Shown: positions 22,101 to 42,278 of the stretch, in pieces
Layout of the letters: every line of letters starts with the position of its first letter
Numbering within the stretch: the first letter of the stretch is position 1
IMG/VR virus record: IMGVR_UViG_3300046011_007723
Location: 1-63,582 of that record
Source: a virus
Direction: 5' to 3' (one strand)
DNA: 63,582 nucleotides
Translations under genes and position numbers: made by a program
Notes under the pieces: generated by a model
What the model was told of the DNA's origin: nothing
Database searches by the model: none
What the model saw: the letters and a program-made list of their open reading frames with translations, nothing else

Positions 22101-22365
22101 TTATTTGATTTGTTGTAACATCACTAACAATAGCGCCTGCATTTGGAAATCTAGCGGCAGATGCGCCATCACCCATAGAAACAGTGCCTGTAAAGGTTGG
22201 GCTATTTGATAGTACAATTGTACCGCCACCAGAAGGCGCAGTGGGTAAGGTATAAGGAGCTGAGTTTGTTCCACCTAACGCAACAAGTATGTTTGTAAAA
22301 TTGGCATCCACCTCTGCGTTTGTTAGTGGAAACCCTTTGACCGTTCTAAGGGTGAGCGTTGACAT
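19108..22365 (-). CDS. Long tail fibre with seven propeller-like repeats
   Basis: A 1085-residue protein. Residues 1-45 share the attachment sequence of the 582-aa fibre (MSTLTLR…PLTN…GGTN…APYTLP). The middle has two copies of a ~90-residue domain ('NDLVRCNTTAGAFSITLP' and 'GDLVRCDTTLGSFTVTLP') and 'GTDYLAPP' shaft repeats. Residues about 680-1010 contain seven units of about 45 residues centred on 'YD-x-x-NQKVVICY … AIVGTVSGTSISFGT', the last three degenerate. Seven four-strand units suggest a seven-bladed beta-propeller head for receptor or glycan binding (inference). It ends near the chaperone remnant. Confidence 0.85.
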   Translation of the reverse strand: MSTLTLRTVKGFPLTNAEVDANFTNILVALGGTNSAPYTLPTAPSGGGTIVLSNSPTFTGTVSMGDGASAARFPNAGAIVSDVTTNQINSPHNIGLLGETKATTTTSTATGTSGANTISISAANAEIAVGQGVTGSGIAPDATVTGISGTTITLSANNTGAVTGTTTFAEYGYGLYGSGYTSGVALSAGMAGVGRVSSSLDTGNAIGISGTALDVHVGGSNIGLYADAYGGATNYALYVNRGAIYSPSTLNISAPSLGLPTGTTGTRPGTAAAGNLRFNTDLAVFEGYNGAKWGSIGGGGLTATAIQTTNGYTAAANDLVRCNTTAGAFSITLPASPTDGDIVGIVDTHETFNTYNLTVLAAGSKTIEGDTTSLILDMNGTYISLVFNSTGSGTGNWRILETPTGVGTFTTPVKVASYTASVGDLVRCDTTLGSFTVTLPTSPADGSIVNIVDVAGTFYTYNLNVARGGSNTVEGDTLVYLDINGTYASFVYNATGTNWKLLQTPYGVLGNVTSAVTLAGITKGTGKDLTTAVAGTDYQSPIGTISGLVKGNGANLLTAATAGTDYLAPPSGTSLLKANSGGALSNAVAGTDYLAAVTPGTSGNVLTSNGTTWTSAAVPASAGTFTAVASGTLANGDVVYLKSDGTVASTISGSSSIGTATALSSNVFAGYTSSAYDPINQKVVICYTNGIAGTGYATVGTVSGTSISFGTPVQFDAGTVTYISITYDITNQKFVICYAISSAYAIVGTVSGTSISFGTRVTVNAGASTYISSTYDSINQKVVICYVSNGGYAIVGTVSGTSISFGTAVQFQTGAVTITSPVYDSINQKVVICYLGAGSAKAIVGTVSGTSISFGTADYFANSPGSAVQFLAASYNLIHKKVICVWAANEQNNVSIGNINENGIDFSTTSVFYRGLLTSTFGSYSINIVSMPTGNIGILFFGNSTYTRKLVIGVLTLNGVVFSTPININTSIDDAYSYSSTIYDSTNQRIVISFNDHQVAGYGLKSIVIKPSDFSLDNVIGISTAAYTNSQTATISTTGSVVTNQTSLTTAKKYFVNELTGVLQSNYSSLYIGTALSSTKLLVQI
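19340..20380 (-). repeat. Coding repeats of the propeller-like head
   Basis: At least four copies of a near-identical segment (for example at 19806, 19941, 20091 and 20231, all containing CAAAGGAAATACTTGTTCCG) mark units spaced about 130-150 bp. Weaker units extend to both sides, for seven in total. Confidence 0.75.
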
Positions 22366-22421
22366 TATTAATTCCTTTAAAGTTGGAGGTGTTACCGTTA
22401 TTATTTTTTAACAATTTATAA

Positions 22422-22428
22422 TATTTAG
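22422..22428 (-). promoter_or_regulatory. Putative late promoter variant (CTAAATA)
   Basis: CTAAATA on the minus strand, 57 bp upstream of the 1085-aa fibre start. A TATAAAT-like sequence lies just downstream of it. The same element at the same cassette position precedes gp25 at 41751. Confidence 0.5.
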
Positions 22429-22444
22429 TGCTTAAAAATAAAAC

Positions 22445-22473
22445 TTTACTTTATGTTTCTAAACACGTATAAT
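22445..22473 (+). promoter_or_regulatory. Early-type promoter P1 (TTTACT-N17-TATAAT)
   Basis: The -35-like element TTTACT is at 22445-22450 and a perfect -10 TATAAT at 22468-22473, with a 17-bp spacer. The leader starts AGCCTAGTCGGGC…; its AGCCT can pair with AGGTT (one G-U). It points toward the 3' end of the leftward baseplate operon, so any transcript would be antisense. Confidence 0.75.
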
Positions 22474-22518
22474 AGCCTAGTCGGGCGTGAATTGAGGTTA
22501 AGCGCTTAAAAAGTAAAA

Positions 22519-22549
22519 AAGCCGGTAAACTGTTAAGTCATACCGGCTT
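22519..22549 (-). terminator. Intrinsic terminator of the baseplate-periphery operon
   Basis: A perfect 9-bp stem AAGCCGGTA/TACCGGCTT with a 13-nt loop, followed on the minus strand by TTTTACTTTTT. It lies 8 bp after the stop of the 67-aa gene, so it ends the leftward operon. Confidence 0.85.
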
Positions 22550-22556
22550 ATGAATA

Positions 22557-22760
22557 CTATTTTGATAAGACTTGTCTAAGTAAATTCTTTAATTCTGATA
22601 GTTCTGATTTAAGGTCAGCCACTTCAGAAGATAAAGAATGTGTTTTATTATTTTCTTCGCGCATTTGTTTAAATTTACGCATTTCATTAATGTCTACATT
22701 CACTATCGAATTTGACCGTTCATCCCGTTTTAAACTAGGATTATCTTTTACAGTAATCAT
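22557..22760 (-). CDS. Small coiled-coil protein at the end of the baseplate operon
   Basis: A 67-residue protein with an N-terminal 'ITVKDNPSLKRDERSNSIVN' pattern and a C-terminal heptad-rich helix (about 40-67). Small proteins with 'V-x-x-NP-x-L-x-RD…AI-N' sit beside baseplate genes in many marine T4-like phages (recollection; function unknown). It overlaps the stop of the 619-aa gene (ATGA). Confidence 0.7.
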   Translation of the reverse strand: MITVKDNPSLKRDERSNSIVNVDINEMRKFKQMREENNKTHSLSSEVADLKSELSELKNLLRQVLSK

Positions 22761-24616
22761 GATGTCGCCACGGCTCTCAAATTTTTAACTCTAGGGAAAT
22801 TAACAGGGTTATCCGAATACATCACCACTTTAACAATAAAGGTTTTAAACGAATTGTAATTAACCTTTCCAAGTTGATAATAAAAATCATCAAGTTTGTA
22901 CTCATCAATAACAAAATCATTATCGGTTGATGAATACTGAATATCACCTTTCAATGGGATTTGTACATATGAATGGTCTTCAAACTTAGCAAAATCATCA
23001 CCGGCAACCGCCTTAATAAAAACTTCAACAGATGTTCCATGTCGTCTATTAACATCAAGCAAAACGCGAATTCCGGTTGCATCAAACCCATCAGCCAATA
23101 CTACCTTTTTCGTCACGTATTTAGCCGCCGCGCCACCGCGATATGGGTCAGTTTCATCAATAAGTAAATCCAGTTTGGTGTTAATAGCGTTCTGAAAGAA
23201 CTTCATATTAATTTTATCTTTCTGTATAACAGGAGAAAGATTAGTATCCGTTGATGATAAGGTGTATTTCACATATGGAGTGACGTTTGGTGCAAGTGTG
23301 GTTCTTTGTGATAGTTTCACATTGGTGTTATTGTTGACTGAAATATAACTAGAATCCAATTTAGAATAATACTTTAAAGATGTTCCAGCGATTTCTTTAT
23401 CAGGAGAAGTGATGCTAATCATATCAGAAATAATAGAATCTGAGTCTTTGATTAGTGGTATTTCAACATCAAGCGAATTCGTATTGAATACACATTTATG
23501 AAGATTAAACATCATATCTTTAGTTTGGTCGGCTGTCCATGTTCTGGCGTTTTGCGACATAAAGAATGACCCGACATTACCGTCTGGATTCGTTGAAATT
23601 AGCTTGCCCGTAGACAAATCTGTAGAACCTAATTCTGAAACAAAAACGCGGTATTTTGCGTTGTCTGAACCAACAACAATCGCATATTCTCCAGCTTCAA
23701 GATGAATAGGATCGCTGAACGTAAATGTTGTAGCAGTTGGGATAGGCGCTATGCTAGTTCCTGTTGGTAAATTAACAGATGCATAAGGTATCTCAACTCT
23801 TGAGTTTGTTAAATGCGAATCAGAAGAAGGATAGCCGTTAACCGTTTTTGTCACATAAATCCAAGCTGTTGAGTTTGACCCAGTATCAGGTTTCTGCGAG
23901 AAATAGATATCAGCCTTAGAAAGGAATAAGCCGTTAGGGTATTCTTTAGGATTAACGTAAAATGATTGGGCAACTGGATCAATAACAATATTTAGTTTTT
24001 CGTCAGAAGAACCTGTTACAACATACCCCTCACCAGATGTTCCTTCATATGATAATTGTATATCACTATGTCCTCCACTATGGTCGTCACCGTTAACAAA
24101 AATGTAAAACGTTTTAGATGGAACAACAAAATTGCCGTCAAATTGCACACCTCTTTTTATTCCTGTTGGTGTTTGAGTTCCAACAGCAGCAGTGCCTGTT
24201 TTCCAAGCAGTTTTACTGTCACTAACAGATATCTGTATATTAGAACCACCGTTCGCTAATGTAGCCGGCGTAGGTGAGACGTAGTGTATATTTATATTTT
24301 TTCCAATTAAGTTATCGGAAACTGTGACCTCTACCCTGCCTCTCCATCCATATAATCCACCATCGTTTGTTGCTGTGCCTATTGTTATGCTGGTACTTTC
24401 AATTATGGTCTGTTTTATATTTGATACTGCAGTTGTTTTTAATTCAGGGTTAGCCTTATTTATTGGAACTGCAGCTGATGTTGAATTTACAGTAAGTTTT
24501 AAATCTCCGCCTTTACTCGTTAAATATGGGCTAAAATACACAAGACACTCAATGGAGCCGGTTAATTCGGCTCCATTAACATTGCCAACGGGTAAAATTC
24601 CGTTAAATTTATTCAT
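22757..24616 (-). CDS. Baseplate/fibre-anchor protein matching the C-terminal half of DUF4815 proteins
   Basis: A 619-residue protein. The hallmark 'VIDPVAQSFYVNPKEYPNGLFLSKADIYFS' (about 210-240) followed by 'IYVTKTVNGYPSSDSHL' is found in the C-terminal part of the large DUF4815-type structural proteins of cyanophages, where it forms the peripheral baseplate arm. Here it is a separate gene starting 8 bp after the stop of the 3384-aa protein, with its own AAGGA site. The last 150 residues contain a beta domain with 'NRRHGTSVEVFIKAV'. It probably assembles with the giant protein at the baseplate edge. Confidence 0.8.
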   Translation of the reverse strand: MNKFNGILPVGNVNGAELTGSIECLVYFSPYLTSKGGDLKLTVNSTSAAVPINKANPELKTTAVSNIKQTIIESTSITIGTATNDGGLYGWRGRVEVTVSDNLIGKNINIHYVSPTPATLANGGSNIQISVSDSKTAWKTGTAAVGTQTPTGIKRGVQFDGNFVVPSKTFYIFVNGDDHSGGHSDIQLSYEGTSGEGYVVTGSSDEKLNIVIDPVAQSFYVNPKEYPNGLFLSKADIYFSQKPDTGSNSTAWIYVTKTVNGYPSSDSHLTNSRVEIPYASVNLPTGTSIAPIPTATTFTFSDPIHLEAGEYAIVVGSDNAKYRVFVSELGSTDLSTGKLISTNPDGNVGSFFMSQNARTWTADQTKDMMFNLHKCVFNTNSLDVEIPLIKDSDSIISDMISITSPDKEIAGTSLKYYSKLDSSYISVNNNTNVKLSQRTTLAPNVTPYVKYTLSSTDTNLSPVIQKDKINMKFFQNAINTKLDLLIDETDPYRGGAAAKYVTKKVVLADGFDATGIRVLLDVNRRHGTSVEVFIKAVAGDDFAKFEDHSYVQIPLKGDIQYSSTDNDFVIDEYKLDDFYYQLGKVNYNSFKTFIVKVVMYSDNPVNFPRVKNLRAVATS

Positions 24617-24624
24617 AAAAATCC

Positions 24625-27600
24625 TTAGTAAAAATATCTTCTAATTGCTAACGCATATACAACATCAGATGGACGTACATCAGATTTTGTGAATGTTTTA
24701 GTAAAATCTCTTTTGTGAAGTGTACCAACATCAGAATAATAATATCTAAACAAATCAGGCACGGATTTTTCTAAAATTGCATTATCGCCAGTGCTTACTC
24801 CACCCATAGCAAAATACTGAATTTCAGTTGAGTTTGGTAATACAAAATCATTATACCAATCCGCATTTTCATTTAATTCATCAATCCAATCTTTTGCTTC
24901 TTGGAAAGAATTTACTTGCATAGACCAAGGGTGTCTCGAAACTCTATAGCTTGAGCCATCAGAATATTTAAATAAATTTGCCTTTGGTACAACAATTAAC
25001 CCATCATCATACTGGATATCCGGTTTGTTATCAAGTTGACCTATCCTCATCCCCTCTATCCAAAATTTACTATTATTTTTATCATTAAAAATAATAGAAG
25101 ATACATTTTGTATCCCTGAAGGGACATCAATACTCCACTTTAAATTTTCCCCGTGTTGTATATTTGTTGTGTCAATGTTAAACTTAACAACGCGATTTGT
25201 AGCCCAAATAGAATTATCTTTAGTGGTAACGCTAATTGTTGCATTTGATTTCTCTTCTTTAATAGACAAAAATGCATTTAAAGAAGAACTACCATCTGTT
25301 GGTCTATTTAAGAAAAATCCAGCGCTATAGACCCCATCCATATTTGATATAGTGGATAGCGCCTTAAACTTAAATTCATAATGACAAGTTGCTCCAGGTT
25401 GATCATATGTTAAATTTCTTAATGCTGGGTTAGCTGAAATACCAACCTCAATATTCGTAATGTCAGAAACAGACACTCCAATATATTCAACAAGGTCAGA
25501 ACTATAGGTTAACGATGTTGGTTTGATATTATTGTACCCAGAAACCGTAAAATATTCACCAGTTTTAACTTGGGTTATCGAGTTTCTATTTATATCAAAG
25601 AATTCTATAGTTTGATGTGGTTTAGATGAATTAACAATATAAGCCTTTGACGTTAATGGCGAACCGTTAGTTGCATATTCAGCTGTACTTGGTTTAACCG
25701 TTAATGTGATTTCTGTCGTTGAGTCAACAATACTATTATCGTCTAATTTAACCAAAACATAAGATTTACGCGCTAATTTTACTCCAGCGTAACTATGCGT
25801 TGATGCTTCTGAATAGTTATAATGTGACTCTGTAAAATCATCAAAAGCTTCAACTTTAAATTTTCTGCCATTATTTGATACAACGGTATAATCGTATGTA
25901 TCTGTAACAATAGCATTAGTTGGAGTTATTGTAAACTTAACGACATCTCCTTCTTTCTTAGCATTATTTATAGATTGTGAATCATTTTCAATAGTGTATG
26001 ATTTTGGTAACACTATAATTTTCTGACATTCAACAGGGTAAATAACATCACCAGAATTATCTGAGGGGACAAATTTTATTCTGCACTTTTTATTGACAGA
26101 AGAAAGGAATCCAGTTGGTACAGTGTATCTAAACGCAGCAACATTATCTGTGTCCAAATTTGATTGGGTAAACTGCAACAAATTACTGACTGGAGTTAAT
26201 GCATTTCCATATTTGTCTGTATAAGTTATCCCTGAAATCGCAACAAAACTTCCAGTGCTATAATCAAATAAACCTACAGAATAAGAAGTATCTTTTATTC
26301 TTGGCGTAACAACAACATAATAAGATAAATTTTCAAAAATTTCATGTGAACTATCAATAGAAACCCCTTTGTTGGTGTCTGTAAATGTTGATGCTATGAT
26401 ATCACCATTCATAATTTTAGCCGTAATAAATCCAGCAGTATCAGTTTTAGACTTAACTTTTATCGTTACAACATTTGTTCCTGTTAAAGAAATAGCAGGA
26501 GTAATAACACCTAATGAACTAATGTTAGTCAAAGGAGTATCATTCACAGTAACATCGATATCACTAAACGTAATCCCAGACAAAGGTAAAGTCAAAGTAT
26601 GTACATCAGACGGCAAGAAAAACTCATTAGGTGTAAACGTCATGATAGATGCCGCGCCATTGTAAATTGACCTTGCTGGCGATGCTTCATATATTTTAAT
26701 GGCGTTAACGCCCGTATTTGTTGAGATAGATGATGTACCGGTGATAGTTGAACTTGTAATGTTAGCTGTAATTGTACCAATAGTGTAGCTGTTAGATGTT
26801 ACATTAATAACAACAGCGTCGTTTCCACTCAACTCTGGGCAACCTGATAACGCGCCGGTTGATGGTGTTATACCAACTGGTGTGCCGTTAACTTTAACAA
26901 CAATATCTCCAGCAACTAAAGTTTTTAATGGCAGTTTTAACGTATGTATATCAGTTGACAAAAAATGCTCTGGTGTAAACGTTATTGTTTCATTTTTACC
27001 ATAATACACGGTTGTATTACCTGAAACAGAATACGATTTTTTGATTCCAGAATTAGTTGTCAATGCTGTATAATTTGTAATATTAGAATCAGCAACATTG
27101 GTCAAAACAGCTTTAACCGTACCAACAGCCCAACTGTTTGTCGTTACGTTTATTGTTACAGTATTATTAAATTGTAATGTTGGGCAACCTGATAGTGTGC
27201 CGTTTGATGATGTTATTGTCACTGGTTCACCGTTAACAGTTACAGAAACATCAGATGCAACTAAATTTGTTAATGGAAGTGTTAACGTATGTGTATCAGT
27301 TGACACGAAATTCAACGGCGTAAATGTTATCGTTGTATTCAACCCATTCATTATATTAGCTTGAGTTGTTGGGGTATATGAATACGATTTAACAATACCT
27401 TTATTTGTTGTCACATAAGTATTTGATGTGATTCCAGAATCAGCAACATTGGTCAAAACAGCTTTAACCGTACCAATCGCATTGCTACTAGATGTAACCA
27501 CAACATTAACAGTATTATTAAATTGTAATGTTGGGCAACCTGATAACGCGCCGGATGGTGTTATTGTCACTGGTGTTCCATTAACAGTTACAGAAACATC

Positions 27601-30600
27601 AGTTGCAACTAAATCCACCAGCGGCAGTTTTAACGTATGTATATCAGTTGACACGAAATTCAACGGCGTAAATGTTATCGTTGTGTTCGACCCATTCATT
27701 ATATTAGCTTGAGTTGTTGGGGTAAAATTAAACTCTCTAAAATTCGCGCTGTTGATAGTAACCAATTGACTTGCGTTAGGACGATCCGCACTTCCAAAAA
27801 ATTCAATTTTTGGTGTAATGGTCCCAGAAGCCCAACTATTAGATGTAACCACAACAATAACAGCGCCGTTTCCAGTTAATGCTGGGCAACCTGATAACGC
27901 GCCGGTTGACGGTGTTATACCAACTGTTGCGCCGTTAACAGTTACAGAAACATCAGTTGCAACTAAACCCACCAGCGGCAGTGTTAACGTATGTATATCA
28001 GTTGATGCGAAATTCGACGGCGTAAATGTTATTGTTGATGTTCCTGTATTAGTAAGAGCATAAAAAGTTCTTGAAGACTTATAATATTTAAGAGGAAGCG
28101 CTTCACTTGTTACAGTTACCGCATTTGATTTACTAAATGAGGTTGTGTCAGCAGATTTAATGATATAACATATTAATGCGAATTTATCATTGGCTACAAC
28201 ACCGGCTGATGCATTGACCTTAAAATTAAAAATCCCGTTTGTATATGATGTCACATCATATAATATTGCGGTTGATGCAAGTTCAGTATTCAACGCAGTA
28301 TTTGTCGTTGTTTTGGACGTAGAGCTAACCGCAGAACCGTTTGCTGTTACTGTAAAGTAAGAACCATGCGTAGACAAATCTTTTGCATCTGTAGAATTTC
28401 CTGCTACAGGAGTAATAGCAAGATATAATTTATCTGAACCGCTAAGAACAACAGATGTTTCCACAGCAATATCTGACGTTGTTCCAACTATAACACTAAA
28501 CGCATTCTCAGTTTTATTTTTCCCGTTTCTATGGATACTCAAAGATATAGGAACCACAGGTTTGGTACTAACGCTCAAGTCTTGAGATTTTGTTAACTGA
28601 ATAAGAACTGTAGAACTTGTGACAGAATTTATTTTTACATTTATAATGTTACCTGTTGTTGTGGTTGCGGTGTTCTTTTTAATCCAGATTTCTTTAGAAA
28701 TCTTTTTATTAGAATCAACTTTACCAACAACACGTATAGAGGATTCAGGGTTTACTTCTGCAATTAAACCTAATGTATTGCCGGTTGACGTGATATCAAA
28801 TGTTACTGTGTCATCTTTATTCAAATTAGGAACATCAATTTCAACTCTAATTCGGTAAGAGTTAGTTGAATCTGGAAGTTCTAAACCAGTTATTTTAGTT
28901 TCTGTTGCATCATAAAAATTAATATTTGCTGTTGGTGTATTGACAGCAACTAATGAAATTTCAGAGTTTGATGCAGATGCCACAGTGCTAGAAGAATCAG
29001 TGACCGTTAATACAATTTGTTTGGTTGATGCAATACCTTTAGAATTTCTTGTAATAGGTATAGATAACGAACCGCCTACTGCAATGCTACCACTTCCACT
29101 ATAAGTTGAAAAATAATCAGAAATGTTACTAGCATCAGCAAACGCAATAGACCAAGTAACATTTCTAGCAGTGTTTTCATTTAAAATAGTTACGTTATAA
29201 TTTACAGTTCGACCAACATCAATAGTTGAACTGTCTTTCGTAATTTTAAAGGTTCTTGTTGCGTTATTCAATAACAATGAATCTTTAGCAGATAAATTAC
29301 GAGAAGTTGGTTTAATTTCTGCATTTAGTGTAATATTACTAGGCACACCAAGACTAAAACCAACATCAACTAAATTAGAAACAGCAAGCAATTCAGCAGA
29401 AGTCATTGTTGTAGAAAATGTGTTTGTATTACCAGCAAACACATAAACACCAGCCGCAGATGGTACAGGATTTGGTGTAATATTAATCGAAAATATTTCA
29501 GATGTTGGAAAGTTACTTTGGGCGATTAACAATTTAGCAGAAGAAGCCGTACCGCTTGTGCTAGTAGGGTTAATCGTAGTCAAATCTCCAGTATTTGTGC
29601 TATTTCTAAATGAAGTTGACAACGTTGGCTGGACAGATTTTGTTAAATTAAAATTGTTAGATGTCAGCGTATTTTTGCCATTGTATAGCAAAGAAACATT
29701 AAAGGTTTTGTCTGTTGTAGCTAATCGATTAGCTACAGCAGTGAGGCTAAATGTCAATGTTCCTGTTCCATCTAATACTCCAGATGTTTTATTCAATGTG
29801 TATTCATTAGGCGCAAGATTTGATACCTTAATTTCTGTTATTTTGGTCCCAGCAGCAGCTGCGCCATAACTTGAAGTTACAGAAAAATTAATTGTTCCTG
29901 CATCCGTTATACTTGAATTAGCAGTTTTATCCGCAGATATTGTTGTTGTTTCTTCGTTGTTTTGGATGTAGCAAATAGAATTTATGCCTTTGCCTTTATT
30001 TGCGCCAGTTAACTCCAATTTTAACGTTTTTGCCGCTGTCAATACCAGACTGTTTGAAACTGTAACAGAAACGGTTAATGTAGTTCCAGTGAACGAAGTT
30101 ATAACAGGTGAAAGCACATAGCCGGTTAAAGTCGTAATATCAACGTCATTGGCAGTGATAACAAATGGAATCGTGTCAGATAGCGCATTTGTTGTATAAT
30201 GGTTCGTTTCTAAAGCGAATGTTATTCTAGACCCTTGTGATACGTTAGAAGAAAATGCGTTATTTGATAGTTTGTAATATTTCGTATCAAAATTACCTAT
30301 GATTTTAACTACATGCTCTTTGGAATTACCAGATGCATCAGTGAAAACATATCGATACTGTCCATTTTTATCTTTATAAACAGTTTCTCCTGCCACATCG
30401 TCAGCAGATACGCTTCTAGTCAATACATGCGTAGGGTTAGCGTTTGATGTATTAAAAGGGTTTGCTGTTGTAAATGACGATGTGATATCCACTTCAGCTG
30501 CACTGCCAATTTTCTTATAAACTTTATATGAAATTGGAATATCAGCTTCAGCATTATTAGATTGGAACGACACATTAATTGTATCAGTTGTTGCTACTGA

Positions 30601-33600
30601 AACTGGTCCACTCACAGAATATGCTGTTTTAACAGGGTTCAACAATTTAATAGTAGAGGATAAAGATGACCCATATAAAAATTCAGGATATTTCGTAATG
30701 TCTCTGCTAGATTTATTATGTGGCGTAACCGTTAGCGTAATTTTTCTAGCAGCTTGAGATGCCCCATCATCTGTTACTTTCAATTTAATGACTGCTTTAC
30801 CAGCTGAATCAACGGCAAACGTAAACGATGTCAAAGATGTAATTGCTGTTCCATTTAAAGTTTTAGAATCAAAGGTAGCCGTTCCATCTGTTACAACAAC
30901 TGTGCCAGTAAAGTCACCTTTCAAATCGTAATTGATTGCGTTGAATGTAAAGGTAAAGTATTCTCCTTCACTCACAACATAACTAGAAGGTTCAATAGTA
31001 TAAGTCGCAGTTGGTTTAGGGACTTTCAATTCAGTTACAACAGCATCGCCAACTTGGTCTCCAGTCACAACACTAATTGGTTTTGTATCAGCATATTTTG
31101 CGCTCATATCAACATAATAGTTAACAGAAACATATGATGATGCGTATTCTTTACCTGCTGGATTATTAGAGAAAGTGATTACAAAGGTAGATCCTTCTTT
31201 CCCTTGAGGAATAACAATATAGCCGGTTGCGTTGCCAGAATCATCGGTGGTTGGTTGTTGAGTTAGGAACGTAGAACCAGTCAAATTTGTTACAAACCCA
31301 TCTTCTTGTAATTCTTTTCCAAAGAAATAATATAATTTTGTGTTAGCCAACATATTGGTGACTTTATATTGTATAACACGCTCACGTGTAACCGGAATAA
31401 TATTCTTACTGAAATTATAGGTTGTTCCTGACACGATTTTATTTTTAGATGTTGCAATATCAATAAAATCCGCGTCGGCAGAAGTAATAGCAGAAGTTGA
31501 TAAGGTAGCGCCTGATTTCGGATCCCAAGCATTCCATACCGTAACCGGCACAAGATCTGATGTTCCAGCTAATTGTTTAATTGTATCTGCATCATTAACA
31601 GGCAACAATTCTTTGACCCAATGGTCTGTGTCAGGTTTTAACACAGCAGAACCAGAAGCTGTTGTTACGTTATACGGGTTAACAGATACTGTTGTTGAGT
31701 ACGAGTTAACGCCGGTTAATTTTGTTGACGTATAAGGTAAAGTGATTGTGTTAGAGTTAATACCAATTCCAGTTGTAGCTAAATTAGCATGAGCTGTTTT
31801 AGTGTAAAATTTTGGTCTTAATTCATTTTTGTCATAATCAATCTCAGTTTGCATATCTGGATTGGTGACGTCAGCAACATTTTTACCTTGGAACGCATCA
31901 ACTAAGAATCCGTTGTTGAATAATGGAGTGCCATTATCATCAGTAAAGGTTTTTGATGAGGTATCTTTTTCAAGCATTGATAATGAAGTATAGTATTCAA
32001 CATTTTCAATTCTGCCTTCCAAAACGCCGATATCTTTCATCGTATATCTTTTGTTTTTAACTAAAGATAATTTTGTAGATTTTTCATCATCAGTATAAGC
32101 GTCATAGGTAATAGAGCAAATATCCATAGCGTCTGGATTAGACGCTGGATTAATAGGTTGTCTAGCAGGAATACCTTGTATGATTTGATATTTACCTGTT
32201 TTGTCTAAAGATAATTTGTCAATTCTACCGAGGTAATAGTCAACATCTAAAATAGCATTAGAGAATGGTAAAATAAATGTATCAAACCCAGCACCATTTT
32301 CTTTTTGAACAGGTCTAAAATCTAAACAGTTTCTTAGTTTATATGTTGAGAATGAAACGCTGTCGTAATAATTGCCAATATCAGAATAAGAAACCGCAAT
32401 AGTATTATTTACAACAAGAGGTCCTTCGCCAGAATGTACATAATAATCAAACACGGCTAAAATTGATGTTGTAGTAGTAAAGGCGGTTTTTCTACTTATA
32501 AATCCATTGCCATAATATGAATCAGTTTGACCGTTATCAATTTGGAATGTAGAACCAATATTTTCATATGCAGTTGTTCCTAACGTTGTACCAGAAATAT
32601 CGTATAGTTTACCGTTACGCATAACAACAGAATTTGCACTATATGATACTAATTCATCATATGCCCCTGCATAAATTTTACTTCCAATTTCATAAGCGCC
32701 CGTAAATTTATGAATATCAGATACACCCAAACTTTGCGTAGCTGCAGAATCCTCTAAAAACGTGACCTTTTTGCCATAATTAGAAACTAATGTTTTTGTT
32801 CTTACAGCCTGACCAGACATGTTTATAGTTGCTATGATATCAACAACACCATTGAATGATGCATCATTAAAATCAAAACTGATAGAAGAATTCGTATCTG
32901 GATTTGTGCTAACTGTAATATCTATTTGCGATAAATCCAAAACAGAATTAACCACATATCCATTTCCAGAAGATAAGGATAATAGAGCAATTGTGTAATT
33001 AATATTGTTTGATGTCCCTGAAGATGGAACAAAATCTTTTGTTAATGAATCTGACGTCAACGAACACACGCCGCCGTAAACTGGAACAGATTTGAACAAT
33101 TTTTTTGTTTCATATGAAATGCTAGAAACAGTTTTAATATTACCAAGTGGAATTGGAAACACCAATAGTCTATTTGCGGTATCTGATATTTTAGCTGATG
33201 TTAATGTTGCTATAAATTCTCCTGTTTTTTCTCCAATTGAAATCACAGAAGAAAAAGAATCTGACGTTAACGATACATCATCAAGATAAAGCTGGTATTC
33301 GCCATATGAAACTGGAATAAGGTTAATGACCCTTGCTGTCCCAATAATAGTGCCTGTGCTATTATACAGATTTACACTTGAAGAAGATGTGATATCAGGG
33401 AGACTTCCTGATATTGAACCTACAGTAACATAGTTTCCATACTGCGTTGCAACAGTATAATCTGTTGTGCTTGCAAATGTTCTTGGTTTAGTTAATTGAA
33501 TAGAACTAACACCATTTTTTTCAATCTCATATCCTTTGACGTAAGCCTTACCCGCTGCTACATTTAGTGTCAATAATGTTTCGTCTGGGTTAGCCTTTAC

Positions 33601-34779: not shown

Positions 34780-34817
34780 ATTCTAGTTCTCTTATTGTTA
34801 TTGGTTAACGATACAAT

Positions 34818-34824
34818 TATTTAG
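34818..34824 (-). promoter_or_regulatory. Putative late promoter variant (CTAAATA)
   Basis: CTAAATAA on the minus strand, 39 bp upstream of the giant protein start at 34779, in the 55-bp gap after gp8. Confidence 0.6.
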
Positions 34825-34834
34825 GCTATTTTCT

Positions 34835-36451
34835 TCAAAATTTAATTACTGTTTGCAGAGAAATAGTTTGCTCATTCGATTGATAAAACGCATATCTGTT
34901 ATCTATATAAAGAATGTCCCCACTAAATATATCAACATTAGGCGTAACTAATGCATCAATTCTAAAAGTTATACTTGGATTTGATGTAACAGCCAAAAAA
35001 TTTGCGATCGATAATGGCACATTATCTTTAGGTTGTAATAGTAAAGAGCCGCCCGTTGTATTAGCTTTAGCTGAAACAACCACAAATTCTTTTCCTACAT
35101 AAGTCCCAGACGTCAAATTAACGATTGTGTCATTAGGGTAATCTGTTAAATTGAATGCACCAAAAGTCGTTGCTGTATAACAGTTTGACCCTAGAATTCC
35201 TGTATAGGGTAATAAATCAGAACCAACTGGATTTTTAATTAAACCAAATTGTCTGTAATCATTATCAATATTAAAGCCGTTAATGTTATCATTATGTACA
35301 GATGTGGCAAACATAATACGATTTCCGAATAACTCTTTTATCGCATTTCTACCGTGTCCGCCATATGGAGAAATAATTGCACGAGCAGTAGCTTCATGTC
35401 CAATTGTATCTATAATTGTAATGGTTGCGTAGGTATAATCGTATCCAGGATTTGTTATGGTCATTGCCTCAATTTGATTTGACGCATTGATTACAGGTAC
35501 GGCAATGCATCCCTGCCCATCTCCCTCAATTACAATTTGCGTTGTTGGTGAATAATCATATCCACCAAATGTAACTTTAATTCTTTCTATGGTACCATTA
35601 ATCGCGGCTAATTCAACATTTGATTGTTGTGTTGTAACAGAACCATAATCTGTTGAAGACGTTATAACCGCGCCCGTTCCAGGATTCAAATTGCTATCTG
35701 TAATCTGGTATTCGATATCAAGATATCCCTCGCCATGATCGTTAATAATAGCGCCGGTAATTTCTCCGGTCACATTATCAATATCAAGAGATATGTCTGC
35801 ATCAGTTCCTGTTTGGGAAACAATAGTGACTTCTGTCGTTGATGGGTGATAACCAGAACCACCATTTACTATCACAACATTATCTATACCACCATTGTTA
35901 TAATACCGCGTTGACATAGATGTATCAACTGGTAAAAATAATGGAGTCATAAATTTACGTTGGAAAATGATAGGTATGGCGTACATAAATTTCCAAATGT
36001 ACCCATCAACTTCTTTAAACGGTAGCGTATCCGTATTAGATGGTTGAACAGTTGATGGTCTACCGTTATTATTATTCAAACATTTGTAAACATTATTTGA
36101 TGAATTTACGATATAAAACTTGGCAGATTCTAGTGAAGTTGCCCCAGAACTAGCCAAGTTTGTAGTCGAATAAGAATCATCATAATCATCATAAACTGTA
36201 CCGCTGACCCAGTTTATTCTAGGGATAACGTAAGAAATATCGTTTACAGAAACACGTTTTATGAAGACAACATCTCTTTTTGTTTGTTGTTCATATGTAA
36301 ACGTTTTTGATGGATTTTCTGGTTGGTCTAACGTATTATACGGTAAACTTTTCCCCAAATAATAATAAAATTTTACAGTGTTGCTTTTAATATCACGAAA
36401 AGTTGATTCAGCTAACGCTATGTGAAACCCTTGGCTAAGTATGGAGCTCAT
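34835..36451 (-). CDS. gp8: Baseplate wedge protein gp8-like
   Basis: A 538-residue protein. The stretch 'WVSGTVYDDYDDSYS' (80-95), 'FYIVNSSNNVYKCLNNNNG' (about 112-130) and 'VDGYIWKFMYAIP' (about 148-160) matches the conserved core of T4-like gp8 in cyanophages. Residues about 190-360 hold four 'I-x-x-GG-x-GY/YDY' beta repeats. It is longer than T4 gp8 (334). gp8 dimers are part of the baseplate wedge and help connect to the outer ring. It sits between the giant arm protein and gp7/gp6, in an order comparable with T4 wedge genes. Confidence 0.85.
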   Translation of the reverse strand: MSSILSQGFHIALAESTFRDIKSNTVKFYYYLGKSLPYNTLDQPENPSKTFTYEQQTKRDVVFIKRVSVNDISYVIPRINWVSGTVYDDYDDSYSTTNLASSGATSLESAKFYIVNSSNNVYKCLNNNNGRPSTVQPSNTDTLPFKEVDGYIWKFMYAIPIIFQRKFMTPLFLPVDTSMSTRYYNNGGIDNVVIVNGGSGYHPSTTEVTIVSQTGTDADISLDIDNVTGEITGAIINDHGEGYLDIEYQITDSNLNPGTGAVITSSTDYGSVTTQQSNVELAAINGTIERIKVTFGGYDYSPTTQIVIEGDGQGCIAVPVINASNQIEAMTITNPGYDYTYATITIIDTIGHEATARAIISPYGGHGRNAIKELFGNRIMFATSVHNDNINGFNIDNDYRQFGLIKNPVGSDLLPYTGILGSNCYTATTFGAFNLTDYPNDTIVNLTSGTYVGKEFVVVSAKANTTGGSLLLQPKDNVPLSIANFLAVTSNPSITFRIDALVTPNVDIFSGDILYIDNRYAFYQSNEQTISLQTVIKF

Positions 36452-36458
36452 AATAATC

Positions 36459-36905
36459 CTAAGAAATTGTGATTACCCATGTGATTGTAATTGTGTCACT
36501 TGCTTCTTTTGTGATGACAGGAAATACTGTTCTAGCCAACATATTAGTAGTAACGCCGGTTGCGTGGTTAAATAGACCGGCTTCAGTAATTGCGCCCGTA
36601 TTTTCTCCAGCACCAAACGTAGCAACATAAGTTACCGTGTTCAAATATGCTGTAGTTGATGTCAAAGCTTTACGAGTAGAAATTTGAGTCCCTAACGCAA
36701 TATCGCTAACAGCTGCAGCTGTTGTACCTGAACCAACAGCCATATATGACATAGCGCCTGTGCCGCCAGATAATAATGTGGCAATAATAGTTTTACCAGT
36801 TGTTACAACTAGGTTAGATACCACTTTGTCTGTTACTTCGTTTTTGCTATTAGTTTTAACAATAGAAACAACACCGGTAACTGCTGATTGTGAATTTAAA
36901 ATCAT
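36459..36905 (-). CDS. Conserved small virion protein of the wedge operon
   Basis: A 148-residue beta-rich protein with 'SYMAVGSGTTAAAVSDIALG' and the C-terminal 'ITEAGLFNHATGV…MLARTVFPVITKEASDTITITW'. This ending is common in small structural proteins linked to baseplates and fibres of many phages. It has no enzyme motif. It lies between gp8 and gp7, 7-9 bp from each. Likely a small tail/baseplate decoration. Confidence 0.75.
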   Translation of the reverse strand: MILNSQSAVTGVVSIVKTNSKNEVTDKVVSNLVVTTGKTIIATLLSGGTGAMSYMAVGSGTTAAAVSDIALGTQISTRKALTSTTAYLNTVTYVATFGAGENTGAITEAGLFNHATGVTTNMLARTVFPVITKEASDTITITWVITIS

Positions 36906-36914
36906 TTTTATTCC

Positions 36915-38852
36915 TTAAAAGGTTGTAGTGGTTGTGCCTTCTGCGTAATCTATCGAATACGTTTCTAAAAAGTAAGCCATTGATGGTCTGTTTAAAGATA
37001 TAGACCCAATATCTGTAAACTGTATAGATTCTGATAAAGGCTTATTAAAAATTTTTGTTCTAACATCAGATGCTGTAATAGTTTCTGTTAAATTTTTACC
37101 TAGAATTTTATAATAAAATTCAGAATATGTAATATTTTCAAAAAAGTTTTTATTTATTAATTTATATGAATTATCTGGTATATTAACAGAATCAGTTAAT
37201 AACGCCTTTCCAAACAATTTACTTCTACTATCTGTTCCAGTAATAGTATCAAAAAATGGCTTTTCAATGAGAGTAGAGTGATTATCAGTGAATAGTAAAA
37301 TTTCTTTGAATAATTTTTTGAAGAAATATCCAATTTGCTCAATAGAAAGTGAAGCATCAATAGTATTATTTAATGCGTATTCACCAAACATCAAATAGCC
37401 GGCTGGGTTTACCACATTCTTAACAATATCTTTGTACAATTTAATATCTTCTGATACTTTAATAGCATAAGAATAAATTTGATAATAATAGTTATCTTGT
37501 AACACAAATGCATCAGAAGGAAACCCATTACTGGTTGTGTATGTTCCTGGATATTTACGAATAACACCCATCAAAACCTGAACGATAGCCGTATTTTCAT
37601 CAGAAATATAATATCCTGGAGTAACCGTATAATCTGAATGGAATGTTGCTAATGTTGAACCAGCGTAATCAGGAGCAGCATAATTTATGAAATAATTTTG
37701 ATATGTAATTATACCATCTTCAACAAACCCGCTTGTGTAGTCATACAAATAAGATGGATCAAACGTTTCAGATTTATTGAATCCAGAAACCAAATTGAAA
37801 TACACATCATCAACATAACCTGAACCAAAGGAAATTAATTGTAAAGATTCAATACCGCCGGCTGAATTAATTTTAACGACCTTACATTTTCCACCATTTC
37901 CATTTGCACTGTTTAAATCATATATTTGACCAAGTTTGAATTTACTGCCTTTCTTTTCAATTCTGATATTAGCAATGGTTGGTTGTATTGTACACCAAAT
38001 ATCTTCAAATAAAATAGAATTATAAACTTCTAAATCTTCATGGTAAAAAGAATCCATAAAGATTTCGTATTGCCCGTTATTTACCGCCCTAACTCTGCTA
38101 ACATAAACTTCAATTGTTTTATATTCTGTTTGTATGCTAACATATTTACCGGTTAACGCATATGGGTCTACGACTGAAGTTTTAAACTGAATAGAAGAAA
38201 CAGCTTCAATATAAGCTTGGTCTGCTAATGTTAATTTTGTATCAGATTGTATAGATTGTACTGTACCAATAATTACATTAGTATCTGTTTTATGTAGTAT
38301 AGAACCAATTTGTATATTTGTAAACTGAGTATTATACCCCGTCACAATTCTACTGGTTTTAGATATAGAAATCGACCCAGTTTGGTATTCATACGTTTTA
38401 TCATTTAACCACGCAGTTGATATTCCTTTATCGTTAGGGTTAACTGATACAAGAACAGAGACTTCTTGTTTCCATCTTCCATCAGAAGCCTTTAAAATGA
38501 AATCTTTTGGATAAAAAATATCAATCTCTTTACCAAACAAATGTCTAAACAATATTCTTAAAGATTCTTCTGAACCCTTAGCTGAATAAAATTCTTTAAT
38601 ATGTTTTAAAAGTAATTTTTCATCTGTAGTGTTTATCGTAGGTAAATCTGAAATCCCTAACTCAGATTTAATCTGTTCTACAAATATATCTAAATTATCG
38701 TCTAATGATTTTAAATTACCAAACGCCCTAAACTCTGTTTTTTCAATATACGAATAATACAGTTCTAAAAATTTTATGAAATTACTATATTTTGGTATGG
38801 TAAATTCAGGAAATTGAGACGATATTATTGAGGATAGTTTAGTTTTATCCAT
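36915..38852 (-). CDS. gp7: Baseplate wedge initiator gp7-like
   Basis: A 645-residue protein. The N-terminal 130 residues carry the conserved pattern of gp7-type wedge proteins in marine T4-like phages: 'FPEFTIPKYSNFIKFLELYYSYIE', 'LLLKHIKEFYSAKGSEESLRILFRHLFGKEI' and 'YPKDFILKASDGRW'. A VTG-Y-x-T-x-F module lies at about 160-215. The C-terminus has four repeats of a 'D-S-x-I-x-F/Y-x-K-x-L-x-E-x-I-x-x-S/T-D' type. It is shorter than T4 gp7 (1032). In T4, gp7 joins gp6 and gp53 at the wedge core. It ends 2 bp from gp6. Confidence 0.82.
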   Translation of the reverse strand: MDKTKLSSIISSQFPEFTIPKYSNFIKFLELYYSYIEKTEFRAFGNLKSLDDNLDIFVEQIKSELGISDLPTINTTDEKLLLKHIKEFYSAKGSEESLRILFRHLFGKEIDIFYPKDFILKASDGRWKQEVSVLVSVNPNDKGISTAWLNDKTYEYQTGSISISKTSRIVTGYNTQFTNIQIGSILHKTDTNVIIGTVQSIQSDTKLTLADQAYIEAVSSIQFKTSVVDPYALTGKYVSIQTEYKTIEVYVSRVRAVNNGQYEIFMDSFYHEDLEVYNSILFEDIWCTIQPTIANIRIEKKGSKFKLGQIYDLNSANGNGGKCKVVKINSAGGIESLQLISFGSGYVDDVYFNLVSGFNKSETFDPSYLYDYTSGFVEDGIITYQNYFINYAAPDYAGSTLATFHSDYTVTPGYYISDENTAIVQVLMGVIRKYPGTYTTSNGFPSDAFVLQDNYYYQIYSYAIKVSEDIKLYKDIVKNVVNPAGYLMFGEYALNNTIDASLSIEQIGYFFKKLFKEILLFTDNHSTLIEKPFFDTITGTDSRSKLFGKALLTDSVNIPDNSYKLINKNFFENITYSEFYYKILGKNLTETITASDVRTKIFNKPLSESIQFTDIGSISLNRPSMAYFLETYSIDYAEGTTTTTF

Positions 38853-38854
38853 GA

Positions 38855-40669
38855 TTATCTACTCTTTGTAAATACATAACTAGAACCACCAAATGCAGTT
38901 GAATCAACAATAGCATCAATCTTTATGTTATTTGTGTCTAATTGAACAATGTTATGTTGTCTTGAAATAACATCATTAGAAGACGGCTTAATTAAAAATT
39001 CAAATTTTGTTCCGACTAACCTTGAAATTGAAACTTCAGTCAAATTAATAGTGCCACCCAAATAATTTACAGTTCCAAATGTACCAGCAGAATAAATTTT
39101 ATTGTATTCTGAATCCAACGAATATTTTTTAAGATTACCAAGACCATCATCTTCTAAATAAAATATAGTTGATGTATCTCCCGTAATATAGAATCCAGTA
39201 GTAGTTACTGCTTCCTCAGGTACACCAGCTGAATAAATAGGGTTATGTAAATCTATTGTATATGGCGTTTTTGTATTGAAGTAAACGTTAATTGGTCTAC
39301 GAATCAAAATATTAGTTATGTTAGATAAAATAGATTTATCAACATTGTCTATCAATTTTAAGAATTTAGAGTATCTGAAAACTGAATCAAATTTCTTAAG
39401 GTTTGTATCGTTATATTCTCTAACAACATTATCAATCGCTGTTATTAAATCATTTTTGGTTCTAGTGGTAGCCGCCTTATCATAATGCGCTACAATATCA
39501 ACTTGTAAATTGATATAATTTGGATCTACAAATTCTGGTGTAACACCTATGACGTTTCTGTTTTTCAACAAATCTACTTTGATTAATTCTTTTTCAGACG
39601 TTGATAATTTGTTAGAATATTTTGGTTTAATACACATAAACACTTTACCGTAGACCGGCGGTATATTATCTTCACCACCCCAAACGTTAATCGTATCTAT
39701 ATTGGTGTAGTTAGCCTTTATAACAGAAAGATAGTCATTAGCTGTTACCGCCCTATTATGTGAATTCAATAATTTTGGAGCGTTAAATCTAATTTCAGAT
39801 GCTGTTTCTGGTTCATCACCACCAGAAGATGGCATAACAGTAATAACAAAAGATGAACCACCCAGTTCAATAATGCTTCTTGTTAACGCAAATTGTCTAA
39901 TATCGTTAGCATCTGCTCTATTAGTGATAAAGTATTCAATCGTTACAATATTTCCGTTTGTTAACGCCTTACCTAATTTATCATTTCCAAATGTAACTTC
40001 AAAATTATTGTCGTAAATTTCTCTTAGGAAAAATACAGTATCTGTTGATTTTACATTAAGGATATCATTTGCTAATGTATATGTTGTAACATTAGTTGAT
40101 GAAGAAGATTCTTTTACGAAAATTTTTACCGTATCAACGTCAACATTTTTGTTAGAAATAATATATTTTGTTGTATCATAAACAGTATATGTTTCATAAT
40201 TTGGGATGCCTTCTTTAATCTCTATAGCATTTGCTCTATAAACTCCATTTATAGGTACAATAGGAATATCTTCCGTATTATAAAAGAAATATGGGGTTCC
40301 GTTAGAGTTACAAGAAAACGCAGAATATTTTGGCAAAATAGCTGAAGCCGGCGTTAACGTAGGATTAGAAATAATTAAATCCACTACAGCAGTTGCGCAT
40401 TTAGCCGATCTAGGAGTGTAACCAAGAGTACTCGCTAAAGATACAACACTTTCCCTTTTTGACGCGGTATCTAAAAAAGATTCATTAAGCGCCATATTTG
40501 TATACAGCGAATTGTAGTGAGTATTGTATGCAAGCAAATCAACTAAGATAGATAAACCAGAACCCTCAAAATCATAATCAGATAAAGTTGACTGACCTTT
40601 TAGAAAGTTTTTAAGATTATTTTTTATGTTATCAAAGTCAAGTTCAGAAACATTTATTTGTTTATTCAT
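38855..40669 (-). CDS. gp6: Baseplate wedge protein gp6 (baseplate J-like)
   Basis: A 604-residue protein, close to T4 gp6 (660). The N-terminus has the diagnostic 'LDFDNIKNNLKNFLKGQS', 'GSGLSILVDLLAYNTHYNSLYTNMALNESFLDTA' and 'LGYTPRSAK'. The middle has 'FNAPKLLNSHNRAVTANDYLSVIKANYTNIDTINVWGGED', the baseplate-J-like core that forms the iris ring around the hub. The C-terminal beta domain is typical. It overlaps the gp25 stop by one base (40669). Confidence 0.93.
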   Translation of the reverse strand: MNKQINVSELDFDNIKNNLKNFLKGQSTLSDYDFEGSGLSILVDLLAYNTHYNSLYTNMALNESFLDTASKRESVVSLASTLGYTPRSAKCATAVVDLIISNPTLTPASAILPKYSAFSCNSNGTPYFFYNTEDIPIVPINGVYRANAIEIKEGIPNYETYTVYDTTKYIISNKNVDVDTVKIFVKESSSSTNVTTYTLANDILNVKSTDTVFFLREIYDNNFEVTFGNDKLGKALTNGNIVTIEYFITNRADANDIRQFALTRSIIELGGSSFVITVMPSSGGDEPETASEIRFNAPKLLNSHNRAVTANDYLSVIKANYTNIDTINVWGGEDNIPPVYGKVFMCIKPKYSNKLSTSEKELIKVDLLKNRNVIGVTPEFVDPNYINLQVDIVAHYDKAATTRTKNDLITAIDNVVREYNDTNLKKFDSVFRYSKFLKLIDNVDKSILSNITNILIRRPINVYFNTKTPYTIDLHNPIYSAGVPEEAVTTTGFYITGDTSTIFYLEDDGLGNLKKYSLDSEYNKIYSAGTFGTVNYLGGTINLTEVSISRLVGTKFEFLIKPSSNDVISRQHNIVQLDTNNIKIDAIVDSTAFGGSSYVFTKSR

Positions 40670-41727
40670 TATCGTGTACGTTCCAATGTTAAGTTAAGCG
40701 TGTACGGCAAATTAGATTCTGCAATGTAAAATTCAATATTAATTTTTGCCGAATTTGTACTGTCTTCTGGACTAACAAGAACATCAACTTGCGTTACCGT
40801 TGCTCTTGGTTCATAATCGAATATCACTTCTTTGATGGTTCGTTTAATGATTTGCGCATATGCAGCAGAACCACCAGCAAATAAAAGATTTGTGATTTGT
40901 GAACCTAAATTTGAATTAAATGGTCGTTCATAATTTATTGTTCTTACAAGGTGTTCTATTGAAGTTTTTACCGCGTTAGCGTCAATCTTAAAGGTTATAT
41001 CGCCTGGGTGCGAAAATGTAAAATTAGCATCTGATATTGTAATAAAATTACTAGAATCTTCAAGCTCTATTACAAATATCACATGTTCAATATTTTCAAG
41101 AACATTATCTGTTACCGTTTTTATTTGAACATAGGCGTTATACACATTTTGAGATTTCTCATCAAATGTTAATGTACCACTAAGATAGTCTGAAATATTA
41201 AAACTCAAATCTGAATTTCTAGGATATTCACCAACAACATCATAAGAATCTAATCCTAAAATTTTATATTTTATAGGGTAATTTTCTGTGTCTGAAAAGT
41301 TTGTAGTTATATCAAACCGGATGACACCAGATTCTATTTGATTATTGGATAGGTTGGAAATATCTAAATAATATTCTAGTCCATTTCTTTTAAATTTAAA
41401 AGTTGACTGTGATATTGTAGAATAGGTTAGCTGTAAATATGTTTCGTCATACAAATCTGTCATTATTGATAATAAAGCATTATTGTATAACGTTAATGAC
41501 GCATCAGATTCTATAGATTTAACCTTACCTACGAATGAATTCGAAACATAAAGGTTGTCATCTATAGAAAGATAACGGGTGAATTCGGTATCAAACCCAG
41601 TTACAATTGGTGAGCCTGATGTATATGTAAGATATCCTTTTCCTGAAATGCGTTCAAATGCCGATGGGTTAGGCATAAAGTTGAGGTCAATATCTCTATA
41701 GCGTTTTAGTGTTGACATATTCTGCAT
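40669..41727 (-). CDS. gp25: Baseplate wedge protein gp25 with an added N-terminal module
   Basis: A 352-residue protein. The C-terminal 105 residues are the gp25/GPW lysozyme-like wedge domain: 'DANAVKTSIEHLVRTINYERPFN…GSQITNLLFAG', then 'VIFDYEPRATVTQVDV'. In T4 the whole protein is only 132 residues. The extra N-terminal 245 residues contain a module 'GKGYLTYTSGSPIVTGFDTEF…VGKVKSIESDASLTLYNNA' (about 30-85) also seen in gp7 and the giant protein, and one or two beta domains. The start ATG lacks a clear ribosome binding site; an alternative ATG at 41718 is similar. It is first in its operon, 24 bp after a CTAAATA element. Confidence 0.85.
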   Translation of the reverse strand: MQNMSTLKRYRDIDLNFMPNPSAFERISGKGYLTYTSGSPIVTGFDTEFTRYLSIDDNLYVSNSFVGKVKSIESDASLTLYNNALLSIMTDLYDETYLQLTYSTISQSTFKFKRNGLEYYLDISNLSNNQIESGVIRFDITTNFSDTENYPIKYKILGLDSYDVVGEYPRNSDLSFNISDYLSGTLTFDEKSQNVYNAYVQIKTVTDNVLENIEHVIFVIELEDSSNFITISDANFTFSHPGDITFKIDANAVKTSIEHLVRTINYERPFNSNLGSQITNLLFAGGSAAYAQIIKRTIKEVIFDYEPRATVTQVDVLVSPEDSTNSAKINIEFYIAESNLPYTLNLTLERTR

Positions 41728-41750
41728 TAAATTTAAAGTGAAGATACTAA

Positions 41751-41757
41751 TATTTAG
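41751..41757 (-). promoter_or_regulatory. Putative late promoter variant (CTAAATA)
   Basis: CTAAATA on the minus strand, 24 bp upstream of gp25, part of cassette copy 2. It would drive the gp25-gp6-gp7-gp8 wedge operon. Confidence 0.6.
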
Positions 41758-41773
41758 TGCTTAAAAATAAAAC

Positions 41774-41802
41774 TTTACTTTTTACTCCTAGAAGCGTATA
41801 AT
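41774..41802 (+). promoter_or_regulatory. Early-type promoter P2 (TTTACT-N17-TATAAT)
   Basis: TTTACT at 41774-41779 and TATAAT at 41797-41802, 17-bp spacer. It starts a transcript about 60 nt before the 125-aa gene. Confidence 0.85.
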
Positions 41803-41869
41803 AGCCTAGTCGGGCGTGAATTGAGGCTAAGCGCTAAATTAATCATGATATTAACTTTATTGGGTATTT

Positions 41870-42247: not shown

Positions 42248-42252
42248 ATTTA

Positions 42253-42275: not shown

Positions 42276-42278
42276 TTC

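What the first reader, a model, noticed from the sequence alone, without database searches (positions are those of the whole stretch)
22421..41829. A divergent promoter cassette present twice, one full and one empty
Two ~75-bp elements (22421-22500; 41750-41829) share two identical blocks around a variable spacer. Each has a leftward CTAAATA late element and a rightward TTTACT-N17-TATAAT promoter with a conserved leader whose AGCCT can pair with AGGCT or AGGTT. Copy 2 drives a single unknown gene with its own terminator. Copy 1 faces a terminator hairpin and no gene. This looks like a slot for early cargo genes at the head of late operons, with copy 1 having lost its gene or never received one.
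Basis: partly seen in the sequence, partly recalled or inferred. Interest (0 to 1): 0.75.

Follow-up and report, generated by a model that had tools for sequence, protein, structure and literature searches.

The report
Mobile early-promoter cassette in T4-like phages
A short, repeated DNA unit that switches on transcription early in infection is scattered through an uncultured family of T4-like viruses, sometimes carrying a small gene and sometimes none, and at one gene-less site it has stayed unchanged while everything around it drifted, so it probably does a job of its own.

Summary
The duplication is real. Both copies are a sigma-70 early promoter (TTTACT-N17-TATAAT) plus a conserved ~33-nt leader around a variable spacer. 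The window is part of an uncultured T4-like phage, and the same cassette occurs at about ten different sites in over 20 relatives. Copy 2 plus its 125-aa gene moved as one block: it is 99% identical to a phage whose flanking gp25 gene is 79% identical, with the left breakpoint at the cassette edge. Copy 1 has no gene and points against two late operons. The hairpin it 'faces' terminates the opposite strand, and the proposed AGCCT hairpin lies mostly upstream of the predicted start and shows no covariation. A third copy in the same virus is cut off from its gene by a homing endonuclease gene.

The 'empty slot' idea is only partly supported. At the gp15/gp18 junction, every group contig examined has the same gene-less antisense cassette. 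In the most diverged one (gp15 74% identical, fourfold sites 39%) 24 of 24 nt of -10 and leader are unchanged while the spacer is randomised. Gene-less copies therefore seem to be maintained. Closest known kind: the PeSL regulatory cassettes of RB49-type phages, but these copies lack the stem-loop.

The parts
22422..22428 (-). CTAAATA, T4-type late -10 element at the head of the leftward 1085-aa tail gene (19108-22365)
   Evidence: TATAAATA/CTAAATA lies within about 60 nt upstream of 7 late operon heads and of none of 19 early genes; the same element recurs at gp25, gp18 and endonuclease genes of relatives
22420..22452 (+). copy 1, shared block 1: late element, A-tract, and -35 TTTACT at 22445-22450
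22453..22465 (+). copy 1 variable spacer; resembles copy 3 of the same virus (ATGTCCTCAAACACG in L003), not copy 2
22466..22512 (+). copy 1, block 2: -10 TATAAT (22468-22473), discriminator, predicted start ~22480, conserved leader GTCGGGCGTGAATTGAGGTTAAGCGCTTAAAAA
22519..22549 (-). hairpin with T-run on the minus strand: terminator of the leftward 67-aa gene
   Evidence: fold z -5.6 on the minus strand
22557..22760 (-). 67-aa virion protein gene (phrog_473), antisense target of copy 1 transcription
19108..22365 (-). 1085-aa tail fibre-like gene whose head carries copy 1
   Evidence: phrog_4302, phrog_972
41751..41757 (-). CTAAATA late -10 element of the gp25-like gene
41749..41781 (+). copy 2, shared block 1 with -35 TTTACT at 41774-41779
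41795..41835 (+). copy 2, block 2: -10 TATAAT (41797-41802) and leader, shortened by 16 nt at its 3' side relative to L009
41870..42247 (+). 125-aa early cargo gene of unknown function; homologues in L009, L012 and (without cassette) L132
42252..42276 (.). bidirectional terminator hairpin between the cargo gene and the convergent gp5-like gene
40669..41727 (-). gp25-like baseplate wedge gene, head of the late operon beside copy 2

Best explanation
The two elements are copies of a dispersed, mobile early-promoter cassette of a T4-like phage group. Each is a host sigma-70 promoter (A-tract, TTTACTTT, 15-17 nt free spacer, TATAAT) with a fixed GC-rich discriminator and leader. The cassette spreads and recombines through its own short identical blocks. 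Where an early gene lies behind it (copy 2), it gives early transcription to a gene placed inside the late region, and cassette plus gene travel as one module. Copy 1 is a gene-less copy that should fire early into the 3' end of the opposing late operon and make an untranslated antisense RNA. Gene-less copies are not simply vacated slots: the one between gp15 and gp18 is kept in all relatives examined, so the promoter plus the first ~25 nt of transcript appear to be the functional unit. Shown by sequence: copies, dispersal, module exchange, conservation. Inferred: promoter activity, start site, RNA, and any function of the gene-less copies.
For: Over 20 relatives hold the cassette at about ten kinds of site. 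Of 22 loci found with the promoter half alone, 20 carry the leader; among 10 distinct copies the leader is 94% identical on average and the spacer 56%. Window versus L009: gp25 is 79% identical, but 41764-42228 (cassette plus gene) has 4 substitutions and one 16-nt indel, breaking at the cassette's left edge and the gene's end. Presence and absence vary: L131/L132 have the gene but no cassette. Copy 1 is a mosaic, with its left block from copy 2 and its spacer like copy 3. gp15/gp18 gene-less copy: 24/24 nt of -10 and leader core conserved in L142 while gp15 is 74%, fourfold sites 22/56 and the spacer 5-6/15. The six other perfect promoters in the window lie in the early-gene region at 56-63 kb.
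Against: No transcription data. The leader pattern was used in one of the two searches, so only the promoter-half search gives an unbiased conservation figure. All relatives are metagenome contigs; joins at an ~80-nt repeat (notably L027) could be assembly chimeras. Concerted evolution among copies could also hold the leader constant, although the adjacent spacer is not held. Copy 1's own conservation cannot be tested.
Confidence: 0.75

Rival explanations
1. Empty cargo slot: copy 1 is a promoter that lost its gene or never received one and has no function now.
For: Copy 2 shows that cassette plus gene can move as one module. Copy 3 of the same virus is orphaned by an inserted endonuclease gene. 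Distant relatives lack everything at the copy-1 site, so it is a recent arrival.
Against: The equivalent gene-less copy at gp15/gp18 is conserved in all relatives examined, far above neutral sites. No gene remnant lies behind copy 1. In L131/L132 the cargo gene is there without a cassette.
Confidence: 0.3
2. Transcript-primed replication origin: the early promoter makes a G-rich leader RNA that stays hybridised to the DNA (R-loop) and primes replication, so no downstream gene is needed.
For: T4 oriF and oriG need only ~100 bp, a promoter plus an A+T-rich element, and oriE seems to use an early promoter (PMC3016281). The cassette is a promoter plus a G-skewed leader (skew 0.47-0.69), with the following 40 nt 68-88% A+T. 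It is gene-independent and conserved at gp15/gp18.
Against: No origin assay. The A+T richness behind the gene-less copies (68-72%) is close to the window mean of 65%. Many copies lie in front of genes. T4 origins share no sequence motif. No clear GC-skew switch at either copy.
Confidence: 0.12
3. Antisense or interference control: early transcription from gene-less copies runs against the late operon and keeps gp15/gp18 or the tail gene silent before the late switch.
For: Gene-less copies lie immediately upstream of a late promoter and fire against the preceding late gene at two different sites.
Against: Late genes need the late sigma factor anyway (general knowledge of T4). Most copies are not antisense. 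The cassette fires away from the late promoter beside it.
Confidence: 0.2
4. Homing-endonuclease target: the conserved leader is the recognition site of the GIY-YIG endonuclease found next to it, which spreads the cassette.
For: In L003 the endonuclease gene sits exactly after GAGGTTAAGCG of the cassette, and L022 has one next to a cassette remnant.
Against: Two of the four endonuclease insertions of this family found (L019, L024) have no cassette next to them, and most cassettes have no endonuclease gene.
Confidence: 0.07
5. RNA leader switch: AGCCT pairs with AGGTT/AGGCT in the leader to control early mRNA.
For: Pairs can be drawn; 92% of cells form standard pairs.
Against: AGCCT lies upstream of the predicted start. 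There is no change on both sides of any pair, AGCAT copies break it, and the fold is no better than shuffled sequence.
Confidence: 0.04

Closest known systems
PeSL (promoter early stem-loop) cassettes of T4-type phages RB49 and phi1 (Arbiol et al. 2010; Comeau et al. 2014; neither paper held here)
   Same: Repeated sigma-70 early promoter with a variable spacer between conserved -35 and -10 blocks, a conserved leader, many copies, and a link to gene-module exchange. RB49 read here: AAAAAAGTTGTTGACA-N-TATAAT-RCACMCATCGAAACGA at about 20 sites, one of them (+ strand, 73841) driving small genes inside the late region between genes 8 and 9.
   Different: Different sequence family. A stem-loop terminator adjoins only 7 of 21 cassettes and neither window copy. 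The RB49 sites read here nearly all have a start codon close behind; here gene-less antisense copies recur and are conserved, and many copies are stacked on a second early promoter.
T4 early promoters and T4-type late promoters (TATAAATA)
   Same: Host sigma-70 type -35/-10 with A-tract; late element TATAAATA/CTAAATA at late operon heads.
   Different: A long fixed leader shared by many copies; divergent early/late pairing at several late operon heads.
T4 origins oriF/ori(uvsY), oriG/ori(34), oriE
   Same: Promoter-dependent ~100-bp units that need no gene (PMC3016281); one copy here lies beside a gp25-like gene and one beside a tail-fibre gene.
   Different: T4 oriF and oriG use middle promoters and share little sequence; origin activity untested here.

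Membership tests
PeSL cassette of T4-type phages | strong sigma-70-like early promoter | tested here: met
   perfect TATAAT, TTTACT-N17 spacing, A-tract; shared with the promoters of the early genes; activity not measured
PeSL cassette of T4-type phages | adjoining stem-loop transcription terminator | tested here: not met
   neither window copy has one just upstream; 7 of 21 relatives' cassettes do
PeSL cassette of T4-type phages | several near-identical copies in one genome | tested here: met
   two in the window, a third in G001, which is 100% identical to the window over the shared parts
PeSL cassette of T4-type phages | mediates exchange of gene modules between related phages | tested here: met
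   cassette plus gene 99% versus flank 79%, breakpoint at the cassette edge; one exchange only, mechanism inferred
PeSL cassette of T4-type phages | forms encapsidated mini-circles | not testable with these tools
   needs DNA from virions
T4-like R-loop origin | promoter plus A+T-rich unwinding element | tested here: inconclusive
   promoter present; the 40 nt after the leader are 68-88% A+T, near background for gene-less copies
T4-like R-loop origin | replication initiates there | not testable with these tools
   no coverage or nascent-strand data

The most novel reading that the evidence does not exclude
The cassette is a gene-independent functional unit, a dispersed early promoter plus ~25-nt leader kept at gene-less antisense sites (copy 1, gp15/gp18) because its short RNA or R-loop does something itself, for example priming replication at several sequence-related origins.
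Probability: 0.2. Interest if true: 0.75.

Novelty: new variant of a known kind. Interest (0 to 1): 0.5.

Why it matters
PeSL cassettes are known as shuffling points that bring early genes under control. A cassette family that is also conserved where it has no gene suggests that such repeats can have a function of their own, and it gives a defined 24-nt unit to test. It also documents the exchange of a promoter-plus-gene module between uncultured phages whose neighbouring genes are only about 80% identical.

Tried and rejected
Leader hairpin AGCCT/AGGTT: rejected. tRNA or Rfam match at copy 1: none. Copy 1 + transcript ending at the 22519 hairpin: no T-run on the + strand. Cultured phages with the cassette: none (only short chance matches). 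Copy 2 protein family: no Pfam or PHROG match and no tblastn hit in phage records; AlphaFold model too poor to use (pLDDT 39.7), so no fold search was made. A possible distant relative in L004/L026 behind another cassette is only borderline (BLAST E 9e-4, hhalign probability 34). GIY-YIG endonuclease as general mobiliser: only 2 of 4 insertions adjoin a cassette. Close relatives with copy-1 flanks: none. The first RB49 promoter pattern was the wrong one (TTTACT, zero hits); TTGACA found them. PeSL papers not held, so PeSL features come from memory, a citing paper and RB49 itself.
Full report
Observation. The window is a 63,582-bp virus record of a T4-like phage: baseplate, tail and lysozyme genes match T4-type families. 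The two elements are as described. Block 1 is identical at 22420-22452 and 41749-41781, block 2 at 22466-22497 and 41795-41826, separated by a variable spacer. Block 1 is not a chance match (0 of 100 shuffles). Perfect TTTACT-N16/17-TATAAT occurs eight times against 0.2 expected; six lie on the minus strand in the early-gene region at 56-63 kb, and the two cassettes are the only + strand sites and the only ones in the late region.

Corrections. The hairpin at 22519-22549 is followed by T only on the minus strand and is the terminator of the leftward 67-aa gene; it gives no U-tract to a + transcript. With TATAAT at 22468-22473 the start is expected near 22480, so AGCCT (22474-22478) is not transcribed. 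The leader folds no better than shuffled sequence (z -0.23), and across ten distinct leaders no pair changes on both sides while AGCAT copies break the helix. The CTAAATA element is the late promoter of the adjoining late gene: TATAAATA/CTAAATA stands at late operon heads in the window and stays at gp25 in relatives that lack the cassette.

Relatives. The leader alone finds 22 stretches in IMG/VR and the promoter half alone also 22, plus one contig filed under a Lake Pavin MAG. No cultured phage record has it. Of the 22 loci found by the promoter half, 20 carry the leader; mean pairwise identity among 10 distinct copies is 94% for the leader and 56% for the spacer. Contexts: gp25 head with the 125-aa gene; gp17 head; after the tail-tube terminator; before a primase operon; among early genes near a DNA polymerase; a phoH-like region where the -10 is lost (L019); and gp15/gp18 with no gene. 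In five of these slots a second early promoter stands 39-61 nt behind the cassette. Only in three slots (gp25, L011, L014) does it look like the sole promoter of a gene.

Module exchange. The gp25 slot was compared between the window, L009, L012 and L131/L132. gp25 flanks are 79% (L009) and 83% (L012) identical. Window versus L009 from 41764 to 42228 has four substitutions and a 16-nt indel, and identity collapses at the gene's end. Cassette plus gene were therefore exchanged as one unit with a breakpoint at the cassette's left edge. L131/L132 have a 38%-identical gene in the same slot but no cassette, so the two parts are separable.

The same virus. Contig G001 is 100% identical to the window over all shared parts and extends it to the right. 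It holds a third cassette; compared with L023, homology stops exactly after GAGGTTAAGCG, where a reverse GIY-YIG endonuclease gene is inserted between cassette and early genes. Copy 1's left block equals copy 2, including the late element that differs in L009/L012, while its spacer (ATGTTTCTAAACACG) resembles copy 3 (ATGTCCTCAAACACG). It looks like a recombinant (inference).

Gene-less copies. Copy 1 has no ORF or gene remnant behind it. Distant relatives have the two flanking genes adjacent with neither cassette nor terminator, and no close relative with these flanks is held. The informative comparison is the gp15/gp18 junction. All six group contigs with a readable junction (L138, L140, L141, L142, L143 and the short L020) have a gene-less cassette pointing into the 3' end of gp15; L139 (=L027) has the cassette joined to the tube gene and may be recombinant or chimeric. 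L142 is the diverged one: gp15 DNA 74%, fourfold sites 22/56, spacer 5-6/15, rest of the intergenic region 63-67%, but 24/24 for the -10 plus first part of the leader, with TTTACTTT kept. This is a footprint of constraint, not of a vacated slot. Concerted evolution between copies is possible but would have to spare the adjoining spacer.

Mechanism. Best supported: host sigma-70 RNA polymerase starts at each cassette early. At copy 2 this expresses the 125-aa gene inside the late region, ending at the 42252-42276 hairpin. At copy 1 it should yield an untranslated antisense RNA. Promoter activity and RNA are inferred. What the gene-less copies are for is open; early antisense interference and R-loop priming of replication are the candidates. 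T4 oriF and oriG minimal origins are promoter plus A+T-rich ~100-bp units, and oriE seems to use an early promoter (PMC3016281). The leader is G-skewed, but A+T richness behind gene-less copies is near background.

Comparison. RB49 sequence read here shows the same architecture in another sequence: AAAAAAGTTGTTGACA, variable spacer, TATAAT, conserved RCACMCATCGAAACGA leader, often after a terminator, and one copy in the late region driving RB49p140-143. These are, by my knowledge of the field, the PeSLs; that PeSLs mediate gene shuffling is stated in PMC4503421. The window copies lack the stem-loop, so they are not filed as PeSLs, but they work like them. Hence: new variant of a known kind.

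Noticed in passing
window 59980 (-), 60421 (-); L004, L008, L011, L014, L019, L021, L026 and others: A second family of early promoters with its own conserved leader, AAAATAAAGCTTTACTTTT-N-TATAATAGATCTTAATGAAGTTAAACCTTAA...GGAG, present in many copies directly in front of start codons.
   Followed up: partly
L004 ~9960-10060, L005 (minus strand), L026 ~8540-8640: Possible structured leader RNA upstream of tRNA clusters (GGTAGCCTAGTCGGTTTGGATCGGGGTTACTATCAAAATTGG...), sharing TAGCCTAGTCGG with the cassette leader.
   Followed up: no
L018, L027, L029 (gp15/gp18 junction): The promoter spacer TTAGACCAATG is repeated inverted in the last codons of gp15 about 60 nt away (9-11 nt perfect); absent in L142. 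Unexplained.
   Followed up: partly
L003 11651-12373, L022 3044-3787, L024 222-860, L019 3107-3748: GIY-YIG homing endonuclease family with its own late promoter (TACTAAATATTTTGTAC) and hairpin upstream, inserted at different sites.
   Followed up: partly
L027: Contig joins the tail-tube flank of one cassette site to the gp15 flank of another exactly at the cassette: a recombinant or an assembly chimera.
   Followed up: partly
L022 3863-4461: Three cassettes in near-tandem beside gp17, the third with its -35 half replaced by the 3' end of the preceding gene.
   Followed up: no
RB49 terminator-promoter junctions (L135-L137) versus L014/L023/L026: The text after the terminator, TTTTTTATTGCCTAAAA, is nearly the same in RB49 cassettes and in this group; chance or shared ancestry not tested.
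   Followed up: no
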